Assembly (NCBI RefSeq): GCF_900104355.1
Contig: NZ_FNIY01000002.1
Location: forward strand, 620,001 to 684,000
Length of the DNA: 64,000 nt
DNA from: Phyllobacterium sp. OV277
GTDB taxonomy: Bacteria > Pseudomonadota > Alphaproteobacteria > Rhizobiales > Rhizobiaceae
Direction of reading: 5' to 3'
Below, in pieces: positions 27,199-53,485 of this stretch (positions are counted from its first letter, which is position 1; the number at the start of each line of letters is the position of its first letter). Below the pieces are notes generated by a model. That model did not search any database. It was not told the DNA's origin and saw nothing but the letters and a program-made list of their open reading frames with translations. The position numbers and the translations under genes were made by a program.

Positions 27199-27804
27199 AT
27201 GGACAAGTTTACCAAGCTCACCGGCGTTGCCGCACCGTTGCCGATCATCAATATCGACACGGATATGATCATTCCCAAGGATTACCTGAAGACGATCAAG
27301 CGCACAGGACTTGGTACCGGACTTTTTGCCGAAATGCGCTTCAATGAAGACGGCTCGGAGAATCCGGATTTCGTCCTCAACAAGCCAGCCTATCGCAAGG
27401 CGCAGATTCTGGTTGCCGGTGATAATTTTGGTTGCGGTTCCAGCCGTGAGCATGCGCCTTGGGCGTTGCTCGATTTCGGTATCCGCTGCGTCATCTCGAC
27501 CAGCTTTGCCGATATTTTCTACAATAACTGCTTTAAGAACGGCATTCTGCCGATCCGTGTCAGCCATGAGGATCTCGACAAGCTGATGGACGATGCACAG
27601 CGCGGTGCCAATGCAACGCTGACGATCGATCTGGAAGAGAAGACGATCAGGGGGCCTGATGGCGGTCAGATCAGTTTCGACCTTGATGAATTCCGTCGCT
27701 ACTGCATGCTGAACGGTCTTGATGATATTGGTCTCACCATGGAAAAAGCCTCGAAGATCGACACCTTTGAAGCGGCCAATGCCCAGAGGCATCCCTGGGC
27801 TTAA
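27199..27804 (+). CDS. leuD: 3-isopropylmalate dehydratase small subunit
   Basis: A 201-residue LeuD, the swivelling domain subunit that with LeuC isomerises 2-isopropylmalate in leucine synthesis. [27 protein letters not shown] and [17 protein letters not shown] are diagnostic. AGGCAGAG precedes the ATG. leuC is not in the window; leuB lies 3.6 kb downstream on the other strand, the usual split arrangement in Hyphomicrobiales. Confidence 0.97.
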
Positions 27805-27902: not shown

Positions 27903-28937
27903 TTAAGCTGCAAGCTGCTTGGGCTGGATCAGCCCACGAGCCACCAGAAGCTCGGCGATCTGAATGGTGTTAAGCGCGGCACCCTTGCGCAGATTGTCAG
28001 AAACAATCCAAAGCGATAGGCCATTCTCGACAGTGATGTCCTCACGGATACGCGAAATATAGGTCGCGTCTTCACCGGCCGCCTCGTAAGGCGTGATGTA
28101 ACCGCCATCTTCATGCCGGTCGATGACAAGGCATCCTGGAGCATCGGACAGGATATCGCGGGCTTCCTCTGCGCTCATCGGGCTTTCGAACTCAATGTTG
28201 ACGGCTTCCGAATGACCGATAAAAACAGGTACACGCACGCATGTCGCCGTCAGCTTGATCTTGGGATCAAGCATCTTCTTGGTCTCAGCGACCATCTTCC
28301 ACTCTTCCTTGGTGTAACCATCTTCCATGAAGACGTCGATGTGCGGAATGACGTTGAAGGCTATGCGCTTGGTGAATTTCTTGGCCTCGACAGGGTCAGC
28401 AACAAAGACAGCGCGTGACTGCTGGAAGAGTTCGTCCATGCCTTCCTTGCCGGCGCCGGAAACGGACTGATAAGTGGAGATGACAAGACGCTTGATCTTT
28501 GCCTTATCGTGCAGTGGCTTCAGAGCCACGACGAGCTGGGCAGTCGAGCAATTCGGGTTGGCAATGATGTTCTTCTTGGTAAAGCCGACGATGGCATCGG
28601 GATTTACTTCTGGAACGATCAGCGGCACGTTGGAATCGTAACGCCAGGCGGAAGAATTATCGATGACGACGCAGCCCTGCGCACCAATCTTCGGTGACCA
28701 TTCCTTGGAAATATTGCCGCCAGCCGACATCAGGCAGATATCGGTGTCGGAAAAATCATAGGTGTCGAGGGCCCTGACCTTCAGCGTGCGGTCGCCAAAG
28801 GAAACTTCGGTACCCTGTGACCGGCGCGAGGCTAGCGCAACAACTTCACTCACTGGAAAGCCGCGCTCTTCCAGTATTGTCAACATTTCGCGGCCCACAT
28901 TGCCCGTGGCACCTACAACCGCAACCTTGAAACTCAT
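27903..28937 (-). CDS. asd: Aspartate-semialdehyde dehydrogenase
   Basis: A 344-residue Asd that reduces aspartyl phosphate to aspartate semialdehyde, the branch-point precursor of lysine, diaminopimelate, threonine and methionine. The NADP-binding GATGNVGREML lies at the N-terminus, and the catalytic cysteine is in NPNCSTAQLV (C130), with RLVISTYQSVSGAGKEGMDEL after it. AGGAGATAGCAC precedes the ATG. It appears to be controlled by an upstream leader peptide and terminator (see separate entries). It is convergent with leuD and monocistronic. Confidence 0.97.
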   Translation of the reverse strand: MSFKVAVVGATGNVGREMLTILEERGFPVSEVVALASRRSQGTEVSFGDRTLKVRALDTYDFSDTDICLMSAGGNISKEWSPKIGAQGCVVIDNSSAWRYDSNVPLIVPEVNPDAIVGFTKKNIIANPNCSTAQLVVALKPLHDKAKIKRLVISTYQSVSGAGKEGMDELFQQSRAVFVADPVEAKKFTKRIAFNVIPHIDVFMEDGYTKEEWKMVAETKKMLDPKIKLTATCVRVPVFIGHSEAVNIEFESPMSAEEARDILSDAPGCLVIDRHEDGGYITPYEAAGEDATYISRIREDITVENGLSLWIVSDNLRKGAALNTIQIAELLVARGLIQPKQLAA

Positions 28938-28967
28938 GTGCTATCTCCTGTCCCTCACCGCTCTTTG

Positions 28968-29023
28968 CAAAAAACCCGCTGGCCACTGCGGGTCTTTTCC
29001 CCCGGGCCGGACCCGGGAGGGGG
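28968..29023 (-). promoter_or_regulatory. Candidate attenuator (terminator/antiterminator) upstream of asd
   Basis: On the minus strand a 6-bp GC-rich stem (ACCCGC with GCGGGT, loop of 8) is followed by six T residues, ending about 30 bases before the asd ATG. Just upstream is a second hairpin, CCCGGG-TCCGG-CCCGGG (29001-29017). CGGGTC at 29010-29015 can instead pair with GACCCG at 28989-28994, which would break the terminator. It lies between the leader reading frame and asd, as in amino acid attenuators. Folding energies were not computed. Confidence 0.6.
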
Positions 29024-29041
29024 CGAGCAGGCCAAGGGAAA

Positions 29042-29161
29042 TCAGACCGTTTTGGTGGTCGTTTTGGCCGACATTTTGGTGGAAAGAACAGACGCGCCTG
29101 CGCATCCGGCATGAAAGCCGGAACCGCTCGTCAAAAAGTGTGCAGTTGATTCGCTGCTCAC
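29042..29161 (-). CDS. Candidate Thr/Lys/Met-rich leader peptide of asd
   Basis: A 39-codon frame starting with GTG, with AAGGAGA 7 bases upstream, an excellent ribosome-binding site. The peptide begins VSSESTAHFLTSG and ends TKMSAKTTTKTV: 9 of its last 12 sense codons are Thr (5), Lys (3) or Met (1). These are end products of the pathway that starts at Asd. A stop at 29042 leaves 18 bases to a hairpin and about 50 to the terminator. I infer a ribosome-mediated attenuation leader; such peptides are usually unannotated. No homologue search could be done. Confidence 0.65.
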   Translation of the reverse strand: MSSESTAHFLTSGSGFHAGCAGASVLSTKMSAKTTTKTV

Positions 29162-29186
29162 GGGGGCGTCTCCTTAACCTGACACG

Positions 29187-29214
29187 CTTGTATCCGCTTT
29201 CCAAAAAGAGTCAA
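29187..29214 (-). promoter_or_regulatory. Possible promoter of the asd leader transcript
   Basis: TTGACT (29209-29214) and TACAAG (29187-29192) on the minus strand are 16 bases apart. A start near 29180 would place the leader ribosome-binding site close to the 5' end of the RNA. The -10 box is a partial match. Confidence 0.45.
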
Positions 29215-29486
29215 TTGTCCATGCAAAAGATAAGAATATGTCGCGTTACACACAATTTTGGACTTTTGCTGCCAAAAGCAGTCTTTGCTTTCGTGAATAT
29301 TTGTTCAACACTTGGGCGGTGCATGGGGTGCATGACCTTTGGGGGGAGAGTTCCGGAGGACATTCACCGGCGTGAGATCAGTTGAAGCCAATGGGCTTGG
29401 CCAATGAAATCCTGCGCAGTGACAAAAACTGAAGATATGACCGGACCTTGGGGCCGGGCAAATGCTGTTTTCTGGGAGGAATAGAA

Positions 29487-31370
29487 ATGGCGACCACTTC
29501 TGTGGCTGGCGACGCCAGCCGGGCTATGACGAGAGAAGAGAAGAAAGTTATCTTCGCTTCTTCTCTTGGAACTGTTTTCGAATGGTACGACTTTTACCTG
29601 TACGGCTCACTAGGTCTTTTCATAGGTCAGGCCTTTTTTAATGAGTACCCTGAAACAACCCGTAACATCTTCGTGTTGTTGGCTTTTGCAGCAGGCTTTC
29701 TTGTTCGTCCATTTGGAGCGTTGGTTTTTGGCCGCATTGGTGATCTGGTCGGACGTAAATATACGTTCCTTGTCACCATCCTGATTATGGGTACGTCGAC
29801 CTTTCTGGTCGGTTTTCTTCCCGGATCTGCAACGCTGGGTATTGCAGCACCAATCATCCTGATTGTACTGCGCATGTTACAAGGATTGGCACTTGGCGGA
29901 GAATATGGCGGTGCGGCAACCTATGTCGCGGAACATGCGCCAAACAACCGGCGCGGTTACTACACCTCCTGGATTCAGACCACCGCAACGCTCGGTCTGT
30001 TTTTGTCACTGATAGTTATTCTGATTGTTCAGAACCTGCTTGGCAAGGAAGCGTTTGCTGCATGGGGATGGCGCGTTCCCTTTGTTCTTTCCTTCGTGTT
30101 GCTTGGCATTTCCGTATGGATTCGTCTCTCCTTGAGTGAATCGCCTGCGTTCAAAAAGATGAAGGAAGAAGGCAAGGGCTCCAAAGCGCCGTTGACGGAG
30201 GCGTTCGGTCAGTGGAAAAATGCCCGGATCGCTCTGCTTGCGCTGTTCGGTTTGACTGCCGGTCAGGCTGTCGTCTGGTATTCCGGTCAGTTCTACGCGC
30301 TGTTCTTTCTGCAGAACGTGCTCAAGGTCGATGGACAGTCTGTCAATATCATGATTGCGATAGCCCTGCTGCTCGGCACCGGCTTCTTCGTCTTCTTCGG
30401 TTGGTTGTCGGACAAGATTGGCCGCAAGCCGATCATCATGGCTGGTCTCGCTCTGGCAATCCTCACATACTTCCCACTGTTTCAGGCGCTGACCAAGGCC
30501 GCCAATCCGGCATTGGCACAGGCCGAAGCAACGGTTCGTGCAACTGTGACCGCAGCGCCGGGTGACTGTAACTTCCAGTTCAACCCTGTTGGTAATGCCA
30601 AGTTCACCAGTTCGTGCGATATTGCCACGTCGTTTTTGTCCAAAAGTTCCGTACCCTACGACGTTGTCAATGGCCCTGCTGGCCAGCCAGCCACGATCAA
30701 GCTTGGCGATACGGTCATCCCGTCCTACGACGCTGTTGCCGCCGGTGCGGATGCAACTGCCAAGAATGCGGTCCTGACGCATGACCTGAACCTTGCCCTG
30801 CAAAAGGCCGGGTTCCCGCTGGTGCGGGCTGCTGCCAAGGTCCCGGAGGTGAAGCTGGATGGCTTCGTCAAAGCTAATCCGGAACTCAATCTTGATGCTG
30901 CTGCCATTCGTGCCGGTGAAAAGGCCGTCACGCCGGTTGCCAATCTCGTTAAGGACAAGCTGCTTACCGCGGAACAGGCAGCCGGTGCCACCGAGATGGC
31001 TGTTTACACGATCGCCAATGGCGGCGCGTTCAGCGTGGTTGCCGACCCGAAGGCTGTGAATTGGCCGATGACCATCGCCATTCTGTTCGTTCTCGTTCTT
31101 TACGTGACGATGGTTTACGGCCCGATTGCTGCGATTTTGGTCGAGATGTTCCCGACCCGCATTCGCTACACCGGCATGTCATTGCCCTATCATATTGGCA
31201 ATGGCTGGTTCGGCGGTCTGGTTCCGGCAATCGTTTTTGCGATGAGTGCGGCTAAGGGCGATATCTACTACGGCCTGTGGTATCCGATCGTTATCGCCGC
31301 CATGACACTGATCATCGGTCTGATCTTCGTCCGTGAGACCAAGGGACAGGATCTGAACGACATCAAGTGA
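29487..31370 (+). CDS. MHS-family MFS transporter with a large extra-membrane insertion
   Basis: A 627-residue metabolite:H+ symporter-type major facilitator. FASSLGTVFEWYDFYLYGSL in the first membrane segment, GRIGDLVGRKYTF in the loop after segment 2 and WGWRVPFVLSFVLLG are typical. Usual length is about 430-450; the excess is an insertion of about 190 residues (about 336-523), Ala-rich and soluble-looking, with a pair of cysteines in GDCNFQFNPVG and TSSCDIA. The last membrane segments follow (NWPMTIAILFVLVLYVTMVYG). GGGAGGA precedes the ATG. Substrate is not predictable; relatives move carboxylates, prolines or betaines. It is divergent from asd. Confidence 0.88.
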   Translation: MATTSVAGDASRAMTREEKKVIFASSLGTVFEWYDFYLYGSLGLFIGQAFFNEYPETTRNIFVLLAFAAGFLVRPFGALVFGRIGDLVGRKYTFLVTILIMGTSTFLVGFLPGSATLGIAAPIILIVLRMLQGLALGGEYGGAATYVAEHAPNNRRGYYTSWIQTTATLGLFLSLIVILIVQNLLGKEAFAAWGWRVPFVLSFVLLGISVWIRLSLSESPAFKKMKEEGKGSKAPLTEAFGQWKNARIALLALFGLTAGQAVVWYSGQFYALFFLQNVLKVDGQSVNIMIAIALLLGTGFFVFFGWLSDKIGRKPIIMAGLALAILTYFPLFQALTKAANPALAQAEATVRATVTAAPGDCNFQFNPVGNAKFTSSCDIATSFLSKSSVPYDVVNGPAGQPATIKLGDTVIPSYDAVAAGADATAKNAVLTHDLNLALQKAGFPLVRAAAKVPEVKLDGFVKANPELNLDAAAIRAGEKAVTPVANLVKDKLLTAEQAAGATEMAVYTIANGGAFSVVADPKAVNWPMTIAILFVLVLYVTMVYGPIAAILVEMFPTRIRYTGMSLPYHIGNGWFGGLVPAIVFAMSAAKGDIYYGLWYPIVIAAMTLIIGLIFVRETKGQDLNDIK

Positions 31371-31434: not shown

Positions 31435-32547
31435 TTAGGCAGCGAGCGCCTTGAACTTGGCAAGGATCGCATCGCCCATCTGGGTGGTGCCAACCTTGGT
31501 GCTGCCTTCGGACATAATATCAGCCGTGCGAATACCGTCGCCAAGAACACCGGCAATCGCAGCTTCCAGCCGGTCCGCTTCTTCAACCATATTGAAGGAA
31601 TAGCGCAGGCACATGGCGAAAGATGCAATCATGGCAATCGGGTTGGCTGCGCCACTTCCCGCGATATCAGGGGCAGAACCGTGCACTGGCTCATAAAGCG
31701 CCTTGCGGCTGCCGGTCTTGCCATCGGGCGCGCCGAGAGAGGCGGAGGGAAGCATACCAAGCGAACCGGTAAGCATCGCGGCAATATCTGACAGCATGTC
31801 GCCGAAGAGATTGTCGGTGACAATCACATCGAATTGCTTGGGCCAGCGAACCAGCTGCATGCCACCGGCATCAGCCAGCATATGTTCAAGCTGGACATCG
31901 GAATAGCGTGCCTTGTGCGTGGCGGTAACCACCTCGTTCCACAGAACGCCGGATTTCATCACATTGCGTTTTTCCATTGATGTAACCTTGTTGCGGCGCG
32001 TGCGCGCCAGCTCGAAGGCAACACCGGAAATACGCTCGATCTCGTAGGTGTCATAAACCTGCGTATCGATACCGCGTTTCTGGCCATTGCCGAGATCAAC
32101 GATCTCTTTTGGTTCGCCAAAATAGACGCCGCCGGTCAATTCACGCACGATCAGGATATCGAGACCTTCGACCACGTCCTTCTTGAGGGAAGAGGAGTCG
32201 GCAAGTGCCGGATAGCAGATGGCAGGGCGCAGATTTGCGAAGAGTTCCATATCCTTGCGCAGGCGCAGAAGGCCAGCTTCCGGACGCACGTCATAGGGGA
32301 CGCTATCCCACTTTGGACCGCCGACAGCGCCGAAGAGAACTGCATCTGCTGCCATGGCCTTTGCCATGTCGGCATCCGAAATCGCCTTGCCATGGGCGTC
32401 ATAGGCGCAGCCACCGACAAGGCCCTCGTCCAGTTCAAAGCCGCTTTTGAGTTCAGCATTCATATAGGCGATGATCTTGCGGACCTCGGCCATTGCCTCG
32501 GGTCCGATACCGTCGCCGGGAAGAAGAAGGAGCTTTTTCGATGCCAT
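31435..32547 (-). CDS. leuB: 3-isopropylmalate dehydrogenase
   Basis: A 370-residue LeuB that oxidatively decarboxylates 3-isopropylmalate with NAD in leucine synthesis. [33 protein letters not shown] (substrate-binding arginines), the metal-site [19 protein letters not shown] and [12 protein letters not shown] are all present. It ends at the shared terminator. The upstream gap to the lipoprotein gene (214 bases) shows no leader peptide that I can recognise. Confidence 0.97.
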
Positions 32548-53294: not shown

Positions 53295-53485
53295 AATTGT
53301 TAAAAAAGCGTAATATTTGCACGTTTTACGCCCGTTTGGTGGCCCAACACGCGATCTTGAGCAAAACAGGACTTGTTATCGCCCTGTTGAGTCCCCATAA
53401 TTCAGCACAAGGCATGCTGGGGTCCCGCCAGCGGCGCCTGGGAATAACCCCCGACACCCGACGGGACGTAGCAATGAGGAAAACC

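What the first reader, a model, noticed from the sequence alone, without database searches (positions are those of the whole stretch)
28938..29214. Thr/Lys/Met leader peptide and attenuator upstream of asd
Seen: on the minus strand, a promoter-like pair (29187-29214), a strong ribosome-binding site, a 39-codon frame (29042-29161) whose last 12 codons read T K M S A K T T T K T V, then two GC-rich hairpins, the second followed by six T residues about 30 bases before asd. CGGGTC (29010-29015) can pair with GACCCG (28989-28994), mutually exclusive with the terminator. GGCCAA within the Lys/Thr codons (29064-29069) can pair with TTGGCC at 29030-29035. Known: Asd makes the common precursor of Lys, Thr and Met, and ribosome-mediated attenuation uses runs of codons for the end product. 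Inferred: asd is attenuated by charged tRNA-Thr, tRNA-Lys or both. I know of a different asd RNA motif in lactic acid bacteria, but not of this one.
Basis: partly seen in the sequence, partly recalled or inferred. Interest (0 to 1): 0.85.

Follow-up and report, generated by a model that had tools for sequence, protein, structure and literature searches.

The report
Threonine/lysine-sensing leader controlling asd
A short peptide gene rich in threonine and lysine codons sits in front of the gene for the enzyme that makes the common precursor of those two amino acids, and this arrangement recurs in many related bacteria, which suggests that a stalled ribosome reports a shortage and turns the gene on.

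Summary
A T/K-rich leader frame precedes asd in 122 of 132 own-family loci and, by a stricter rule, in 31 of 57 loci of other families of the order (23 of 42 families; 0.02 expected from shuffles). Threonine and lysine are enriched in the tail, methionine is not. Composition is kept while sequence varies, as hungry-codon sensing predicts.

The best-supported RNA element is a long-range helix, R3a:R5, between a CU-rich segment after the leader stop and a GA-rich segment just upstream of the asd ribosome-binding site (0 of 20,000 swaps out of family). The proposed switch helix R2:R3b has only modest support. In two other alphaproteobacterial orders 14 of 16 T/K leaders carry a terminator-like hairpin.

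A leader peptide was already suggested for Sinorhizobium (SEP5, PMC10117765 passages). New here: breadth, conserved dual signal, changing output. The direction of the switch is inferred, and thermodynamic modelling did not reproduce it.

The parts
29187..29214 (-). promoter-like pair TTGACT-N16-TACAAG
   Evidence: sequence; TTGAC at a similar distance in 116 of 122 own-family leaders; not listed by the consensus scanner
29170..29175 (-). leader ribosome-binding site AAGGAG
   Evidence: sequence
29042..29161 (-). 39-codon leader frame, GTG start, ends STKMSAKTTTKTV
   Evidence: relatives
29045..29080 (-). Thr/Lys control codons (TKMSAKTTTKTV), contains segment R1
   Evidence: T/K composition conserved
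29030..29041 (-). segment R2, directly after the leader stop (TTTCCCTTGGCC)
   Evidence: R2:R3b tops an unbiased scan but has only modest out-of-family support
29014..29029 (-). segment R3a (CU-rich), overlaps the 5' arm of hairpin H2, partner of R5
   Evidence: in the window itself the R3a:R5 register is ambiguous and weak, 6 bp at best
28996..29005 (-). segment R3b (CCGGGGGAAA), overlaps the 3' arm of H2, partner of R2 (UUUCCCUUGG:CCGGGGGAAA, 10 bp)
28999..29019 (-). hairpin H2 (CUCCCGGGUC:GGCCCGGGGG)
28969..28996 (-). hairpin H3 with six T at 28974-28969, terminator-like in this lineage
   Evidence: pairing in the H3 region is validated out of family, the T-tract is not
28952..28961 (-). 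segment R5 (GCGGTGAGGG), just upstream of the asd ribosome-binding site
   Evidence: alignment A1; R3a:R5
28945..28950 (-). asd ribosome-binding site CAGGAG
   Evidence: sequence
27903..28937 (-). asd, aspartate-semialdehyde dehydrogenase, 344 aa
   Evidence: the gene name is from the finding and recall, no protein-family library was run on it

Best explanation
A ribosome-mediated attenuator that senses charged tRNA-Thr and tRNA-Lys and controls asd. SHOWN by comparison: a leader frame with a Thr/Lys-rich end, conserved in composition; a TTGAC element before it; and, after its stop, a CU-rich segment R3a and a GA-rich segment R5 beside the asd ribosome-binding site whose pairing is kept by compensatory change across families. 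SUGGESTED: R2:R3b and the hairpin H2 (R3a:R3b). INFERRED: with plenty of Thr and Lys the ribosome reaches the stop and covers R2 (or R1:R2 forms), so H2 and R3a:R5 form beside the asd ribosome-binding site, and where a T-tract is present H3 terminates transcription; asd is low. If either amino acid is short, the ribosome stalls on the control codons, R2 pairs with R3b, H2 breaks and R3a is held in the loop, so R5 stays open and asd is expressed. Lys and Thr codons are interleaved, so the logic should be OR. In this window's lineage the six-T hairpin makes termination a likely extra or main output; elsewhere in the order the output is probably at translation initiation.
For: T/K leader in 122 of 132 own-family loci and in 31 of 57 loci, 23 of 42 other families, against 0.02 per shuffled set; KT is first of 190 residue pairs by number of loci reaching 7 of 14. 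Tail means T 6.06 and K 2.30 per 14 residues, against T 1.21 and K 0.36 in the ten residues before, in 33 other-family leaders; four Thr and two Lys codons are used. In own-family codons -7 to -2 the third position is the most variable, only slightly so at -7 and -3. R3a:R5 out of family z -5.5, 0 of 20,000 permutations; one leader per family (21) z -5.3, 0 of 20,000; H3 region z -3.6, 17 of 20,000; R2:R3b z -2.3, 263 of 20,000. An unbiased scan of 1186 window pairs puts R2:R3b, R1:R2, R3a:R5 and H3 on top. Compensated helices such as CGCUCCCC:GGGGAGCG (L123), AUGCUCUCCCG:UGGGAGAGCAU (L129), CUCUUCCGCC:GGCGGGAGAG (L131), CCCUCACC:GGUGAGGG (L063, own family). Translation of the probable S. meliloti counterpart was seen by Ribo-seq and Western blot (PMC10117765 passages). 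Two other orders combine a T/K leader with a terminator-like hairpin.
Against: Nested thermodynamics do not show the switch: with R2 exposed R2:R3b stays low (about 0.3 expected pairs at codon -3 in the own family, 1.1 in others), R2:R5 pairs appear instead, and in other families R2:R3b is highest (4.0 pairs) with no ribosome at all; predicted openness of the asd ribosome-binding site is not higher with the ribosome at codon -3 than at the stop (0.45 v 0.47; 0.52 v 0.58) (similarly: higher in 16, lower in 23 of 76). With one leader per family R2:R3b (z -1.4) is no better than the control R1:R5 (-1.5). H2 failed the narrow-window validation (z -0.9), though wider windows gave -2.8. R1:R2 is not validated outside the family (+1.7). 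R2:R3b and R3a:R5 could coexist as a pseudoknot, which would reverse the sign. R5 lies upstream of the ribosome-binding site, not on it (SD-like site overlapped in 14 of 69 and 0 of 29). In the window itself R3a:R5 is weak. By mean best count AT (5.91) exceeds KT (5.61), as threonine dominates. 26 of 57 other-family loci and 10 of 132 own-family loci lack the leader by the criteria used.
Confidence: 0.68

Rival explanations
1. Pure transcription attenuation: H3 with its T-tract terminates unless CGGGTC:GACCCG forms.
For: Six T after a GC-rich stem in the window; terminator-like H3 in 33 of 122 own-family leaders against 0.2 in shuffles, though these 33 are related; a possible 5-7 bp antiterminator in 33 of 33 of them; terminator-like hairpin in 14 of 16 T/K leaders of two other orders.
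Against: Terminator-like hairpin in 0 of 33 leaders of other families of the order, and absent from 89 of 122 own-family leaders, while the T/K leader persists; antiterminator pairing not above swaps outside the family.
Confidence: 0.3
2. Same sensor, other wiring: stalling gives R2:R3b together with R3a:R5 as a pseudoknot, H2 being the alternative, and R5 pairing changes asd expression in a way not understood.
For: R3a shares at least 3 nucleotides between H2 and R5 pairing in 53 of 69 and 23 of 29 leaders, so {R2:R3b + R3a:R5} versus {H2} is a natural two-state switch; mean helix stacking sums (-14.3 and -15.7 against -17.4, loops ignored, 101 leaders) would favour it.
Against: If R5 pairing represses, starvation would shut off a biosynthetic gene; in several own-family members H2 and R3a:R5 coexist in the predicted fold.
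Confidence: 0.15
3. The peptide acts in trans or as a nascent-chain arrest peptide rather than by codon hunger.
For: S. meliloti leader peptide peTrpL is reported to act in trans (PMC7298713, search listing and start of abstract).
Against: Composition rather than sequence is conserved, and N-termini are unrelated.
Confidence: 0.06
4. The T/K-rich frames are a by-product of a conserved RNA structure that happens to read as ACN and AAR.
For: In the own family the codons AAAACGACC are also conserved at the nucleotide level.
Against: Other families keep T/K with different codons and spacing; R1 pairing is not validated there; 0.02 expected from shuffles.
Confidence: 0.03

Closest known systems
SEP5 of Sinorhizobium meliloti 2011 (PMC10117765, passages read)
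   Same: Frame in the 5'UTR of a gene the paper calls aspartate dehydrogenase, six Thr and three Lys codons near its end; KTTAKTTTKTV, seen in several loci here, has that count. Translation shown there by Ribo-seq and Western blot; leader-peptide role suggested.
   Different: The paper states it is conserved only in Sinorhizobium and gives, in the passages read, no RNA structure or mechanism. I did not retrieve the SEP5 sequence, so identity with this leader is inferred.
thr operon leader of enterobacteria (thrL; recalled)
   Same: Threonine codons in a leader peptide upstream of an aspartate-family gene.
   Different: thrL uses Thr and Ile and an intrinsic terminator (recalled); here Thr and Lys, and in the other families of the order sampled no T-tract terminator was found (0 of 33).
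Translational attenuators of the erm/cat type (recalled)
   Same: Leader ribosome position decides whether the region of a downstream ribosome-binding site is paired.
   Different: Those respond to antibiotics; here amino-acid shortage is proposed and the paired segment abuts the ribosome-binding site instead of covering it.
asd RNA motif of lactic acid bacteria and lysine riboswitch (recalled)
   Same: Act upstream of asd or lysine genes (recalled).
   Different: No Rfam family reaches its gathering score here, and the three matches at E up to 10 are unrelated and far below threshold; here a translated leader is the proposed sensor.

Membership tests
ribosome-mediated amino-acid attenuator | translated short leader frame upstream of the biosynthetic gene | tested here: inconclusive
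   Frame present in 122 of 132 own-family loci; translation was not tested here and rests on S. meliloti SEP5 in the literature
ribosome-mediated amino-acid attenuator | codons for the pathway's end products near the end of the leader | tested here: met
   T 6.06 and K 2.30 per 14 residues in 33 other-family leaders
ribosome-mediated amino-acid attenuator | mutually exclusive RNA pairings downstream | tested here: inconclusive
   R3a:R5 strongly, R2:R3b modestly, H2 unevenly supported; exclusivity is from shared nucleotides, not from a measurement; folding did not show a switch
ribosome-mediated amino-acid attenuator | response to amino-acid limitation | not testable with these tools
   needs an experiment
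classical transcription attenuator | intrinsic terminator between leader and gene | tested here: inconclusive
   terminator-like hairpin in the window and in 33 of 122 own-family leaders, 0 of 33 in other families of the order; 14 of 16 in two other orders
translational attenuator | the gene's ribosome-binding site is paired in the off state | tested here: inconclusive
   R5 helix ends at median -18 (own family) or -22 (others) from ATG and overlaps an SD-like site in 14 of 69 and 0 of 29
known Rfam cis-regulatory RNA | match above a gathering score in the asd leader | tested here: not met
   only a tRNA and a ybhL leader, elsewhere in the window

The most novel reading that the evidence does not exclude
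Alphaproteobacteria share an old Thr-or-Lys hungry-codon sensor for asd whose output stage has been exchanged in evolution: an intrinsic terminator in some orders, a long-range RNA relay (R2:R3b, R3a:R3b, R3a:R5) acting next to the asd ribosome-binding site in Hyphomicrobiales, with a terminator present again in the Phyllobacterium/Mesorhizobium/Ochrobactrum branch. It would be a ribosome-mediated attenuator that reads lysine, a signal otherwise known to me mainly from a riboswitch (recalled).
Probability: 0.5. Interest if true: 0.75.

Novelty: new variant of a known kind. Interest (0 to 1): 0.6.

Why it matters
asd makes the common precursor of Lys, Thr, Met and cell-wall diaminopimelate (established pathway knowledge). 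A two-input attenuator would explain how much of an order, including nitrogen-fixing symbionts, balances the branch point, and the comparison predicts lysine sensing by a ribosome. Because one sensor meets different outputs in sister lineages, it is a natural series for asking how attenuators move between transcriptional and translational control. It also argues against the published statement that the S. meliloti leader is confined to Sinorhizobium.

Tried and rejected
Methionine as a third signal: rejected, M is not enriched. GGCCAA:TTGGCC as a general stem: conserved in part of the own family but not validated elsewhere. CGGGTC:GACCCG as a general antiterminator: not supported outside a sublineage. 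Folding with a ribosome at successive codons: did not reproduce the switch and is reported as evidence against. Own-family swap scores alone: set aside, because after window selection control pairs reached z -5.7 there. Rfam at E up to 10: nothing relevant. A first, cruder swap test with whole-window duplex energies had control pairs near z -2.5 and was replaced.

Rows dropped and limits: L133 (orientation unresolved) was left out, giving 189 of 190 asd loci. The 132 own-family loci include the window itself, some near-identical pairs (117 distinct of 121 aligned leaders) and the 80 loci, which I labelled own-family by default; at least L103 (Roseibium) probably is not. L043 and L085 were left out of the own-family representatives (69 used). 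Of 33 other-family leaders one was dropped as too short (32) and then L125, L132 and L150 (29). One search kept the best 80 of 576. Of 98 other genomes with a match, 60 were fetched; of 104; of 31 genomes without a locus, 20 and one more (G029). In one search, 32 of 40 loci were readable, the two orders were chosen because a member already had such a leader, the seed genomes are among the 32, and no shuffle control was run for their terminators. No shuffle control was run for the counts of helices of 7 bp or more.

Full report
Observation. The consensus scanner listed neither the promoter nor the terminator. The KTTTKT-coding pattern occurs once in the genome, and the frame recurs upstream of asd in relatives.

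Conservation of the sensor. I read asd upstream regions from 190 loci: 30 from a family search, own genome included, 80 from genome contigs, and 80 more from the order and family; one (L133) was dropped. With at least 6 T/K in the last 14 residues, 122 of 132 own-family loci have a leader. With at least 7 of 14, 31 of 57 loci of other families do, in 23 of 42 families; 100 dinucleotide shuffles of the same regions gave 0.02 loci on average and 1 at most. By number of loci reaching 7, KT is first of 190 residue pairs (31), then AT (28) and GT (17); by mean best count AT (5.91) is ahead of KT (5.61), because threonine dominates. In 33 other-family leaders the tails hold 6.06 T and 2.30 K per 14 residues, against 1.21 T and 0.36 K in the ten residues before. 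N-termini are unrelated and codons vary. That fits codon hunger better than a conserved peptide. Ten own-family loci lack it by this criterion; several of these carry a shorter frame such as MITRSPIKTII or MTVRSLTKKTSIS. A TTGAC element lies at a steady distance before the leader in 116 of 122.

RNA structure. After the leader stop I name R2, R3a, R3b, a hairpin H3, and R5 just before the asd ribosome-binding site. First, an unbiased scan of 1186 pairs of 14-nt windows in 98 leaders compared each leader's own helix with helices after swapping partners between species: R2:R3b (t -6.2), R1:R2 (-4.7), R3a:R5 (-4.7) and H3 (-4.3) lead; windows closer than 17 nt, and so most of H2, were not scanned, and relatedness inflates such scores. 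Second, windows chosen on 69 own-family representatives were tested on 29 leaders of other families: R3a:R5 z -5.5 (0 of 20,000), H3 region z -3.6 (17), R2:R3b z -2.3 (263), H2 z -0.9 (3827), R1:R2 z +1.7 (19,235); four control pairs lay between -1.4 and +1.0. With one leader per family (21), R3a:R5 stays at z -5.3 (0 of 20,000) and H3 at -3.4, but R2:R3b falls to -1.4, no better than the control R1:R5 at -1.5. With wider windows in 32 other-family leaders, R3a:R5 gave z -3.7, H2 -2.8 and R2:R3b -1.1. So R3a:R5 is firm, H3 pairing is supported, R2:R3b and H2 are suggested, R1:R2 is unproven outside the family. R3a:R5 of at least 7 bp is present in 58 of 69 own-family and 28 of 29 other-family leaders (no shuffle control). 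In the window itself it is weak and its register ambiguous (6 bp at best), while R2:R3b (10 bp) and H2 (10 bp) are strong.

Terminator. A stem followed by a T-rich tract is present in 33 of 122 own-family leaders (0.2 in shuffles) and 0 of 33 leaders of other families; TTTTT is in 8 of 122 and 1 of 33. A slightly different rule gave 16 of 69 and 1 of 29. So termination is a reasonable output in the window's branch and not in the order at large. In 40 genomes of other orders, 3 have a T/K leader. In the orders of two of these, 16 of 32 readable loci have one and 14 of those 16 carry a terminator-like hairpin, for example AAAGGCCGCATCCAGATGCGGCCTTT followed by TTGTTTTT (orders chosen because a member had such a leader). 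The sensor is thus wider than the order, and its output appears to differ between lineages.

Mechanism. Most likely a ribosome-mediated attenuator with two inputs. Stalling on the interleaved Lys and Thr codons would leave R2, which begins right after the stop, free to pair with R3b; this breaks H2 and, in a nested fold, excludes R3a:R5. A ribosome at the stop would cover R2. The spacing fits, but the direction is inferred: ensemble calculations did not show the switch, favoured R2:R5 pairing when R2 is open, and in other families gave most R2:R3b with no ribosome present; a pseudoknot of R2:R3b with R3a:R5 would give the opposite sign. The R5 helix ends at median -18 or -22 from the start codon, beside the ribosome-binding site, so interference with initiation is plausible rather than shown.

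What is known. The passages read of PMC10117765 report S. meliloti SEP5, a translated frame with six Thr and three Lys codons in the 5'UTR of a gene called aspartate dehydrogenase, suggest it may be a leader peptide, and say it is conserved only in Sinorhizobium. That is very probably the same leader, though I did not retrieve its sequence. Passages of PMC1273637, on alphaproteobacterial RNA motifs, hold no mention of asd. Nine searches of the open-access library showed, in the listings and passages seen, no description of the wider distribution or of the structure; three of them returned no paper. Subscription papers are mostly not covered, and Vitreschak et al. 2004 on proteobacterial attenuators was seen only as a reference. 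No Rfam family matches the leader.

Verdict. It is a new variant of a known kind, partly anticipated in one genus.

Noticed in passing
window 53409-53471 (+): ybhL leader (RF00520) above its gathering score, a cis-regulatory leader motif.
   Followed up: no
L010, L019, L027, L172, L176, L178, L186, L187 upstream of asd: A branch of the own family has a much shorter leader (about 11-13 codons) with Lys, Thr and often Ile, such as MITRSPIKTII or MTIRSLTKTSIS, with a similar CU-rich/GA-rich layout after the stop in those read by eye.
   Followed up: partly
L234-L239, L241, L243-L245, L248 and L257, L260, L266 (other alphaproteobacterial orders): T/K-rich leaders before asd followed by a terminator-like hairpin, as in classical transcription attenuation.
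   Followed up: partly
window 29448-31370 (+): Divergent frame next to the asd leader reads as an MFS-type transporter with an unusually long non-membrane stretch in its second half (by eye from the translation).
   Followed up: no
window 27199-27804 (+) and 31435-32547 (-): Frames that look like leuD and leuB (by eye, recalled) lie near asd; leuB-like protein tails appear directly upstream of asd in several other alphaproteobacterial loci.
   Followed up: no
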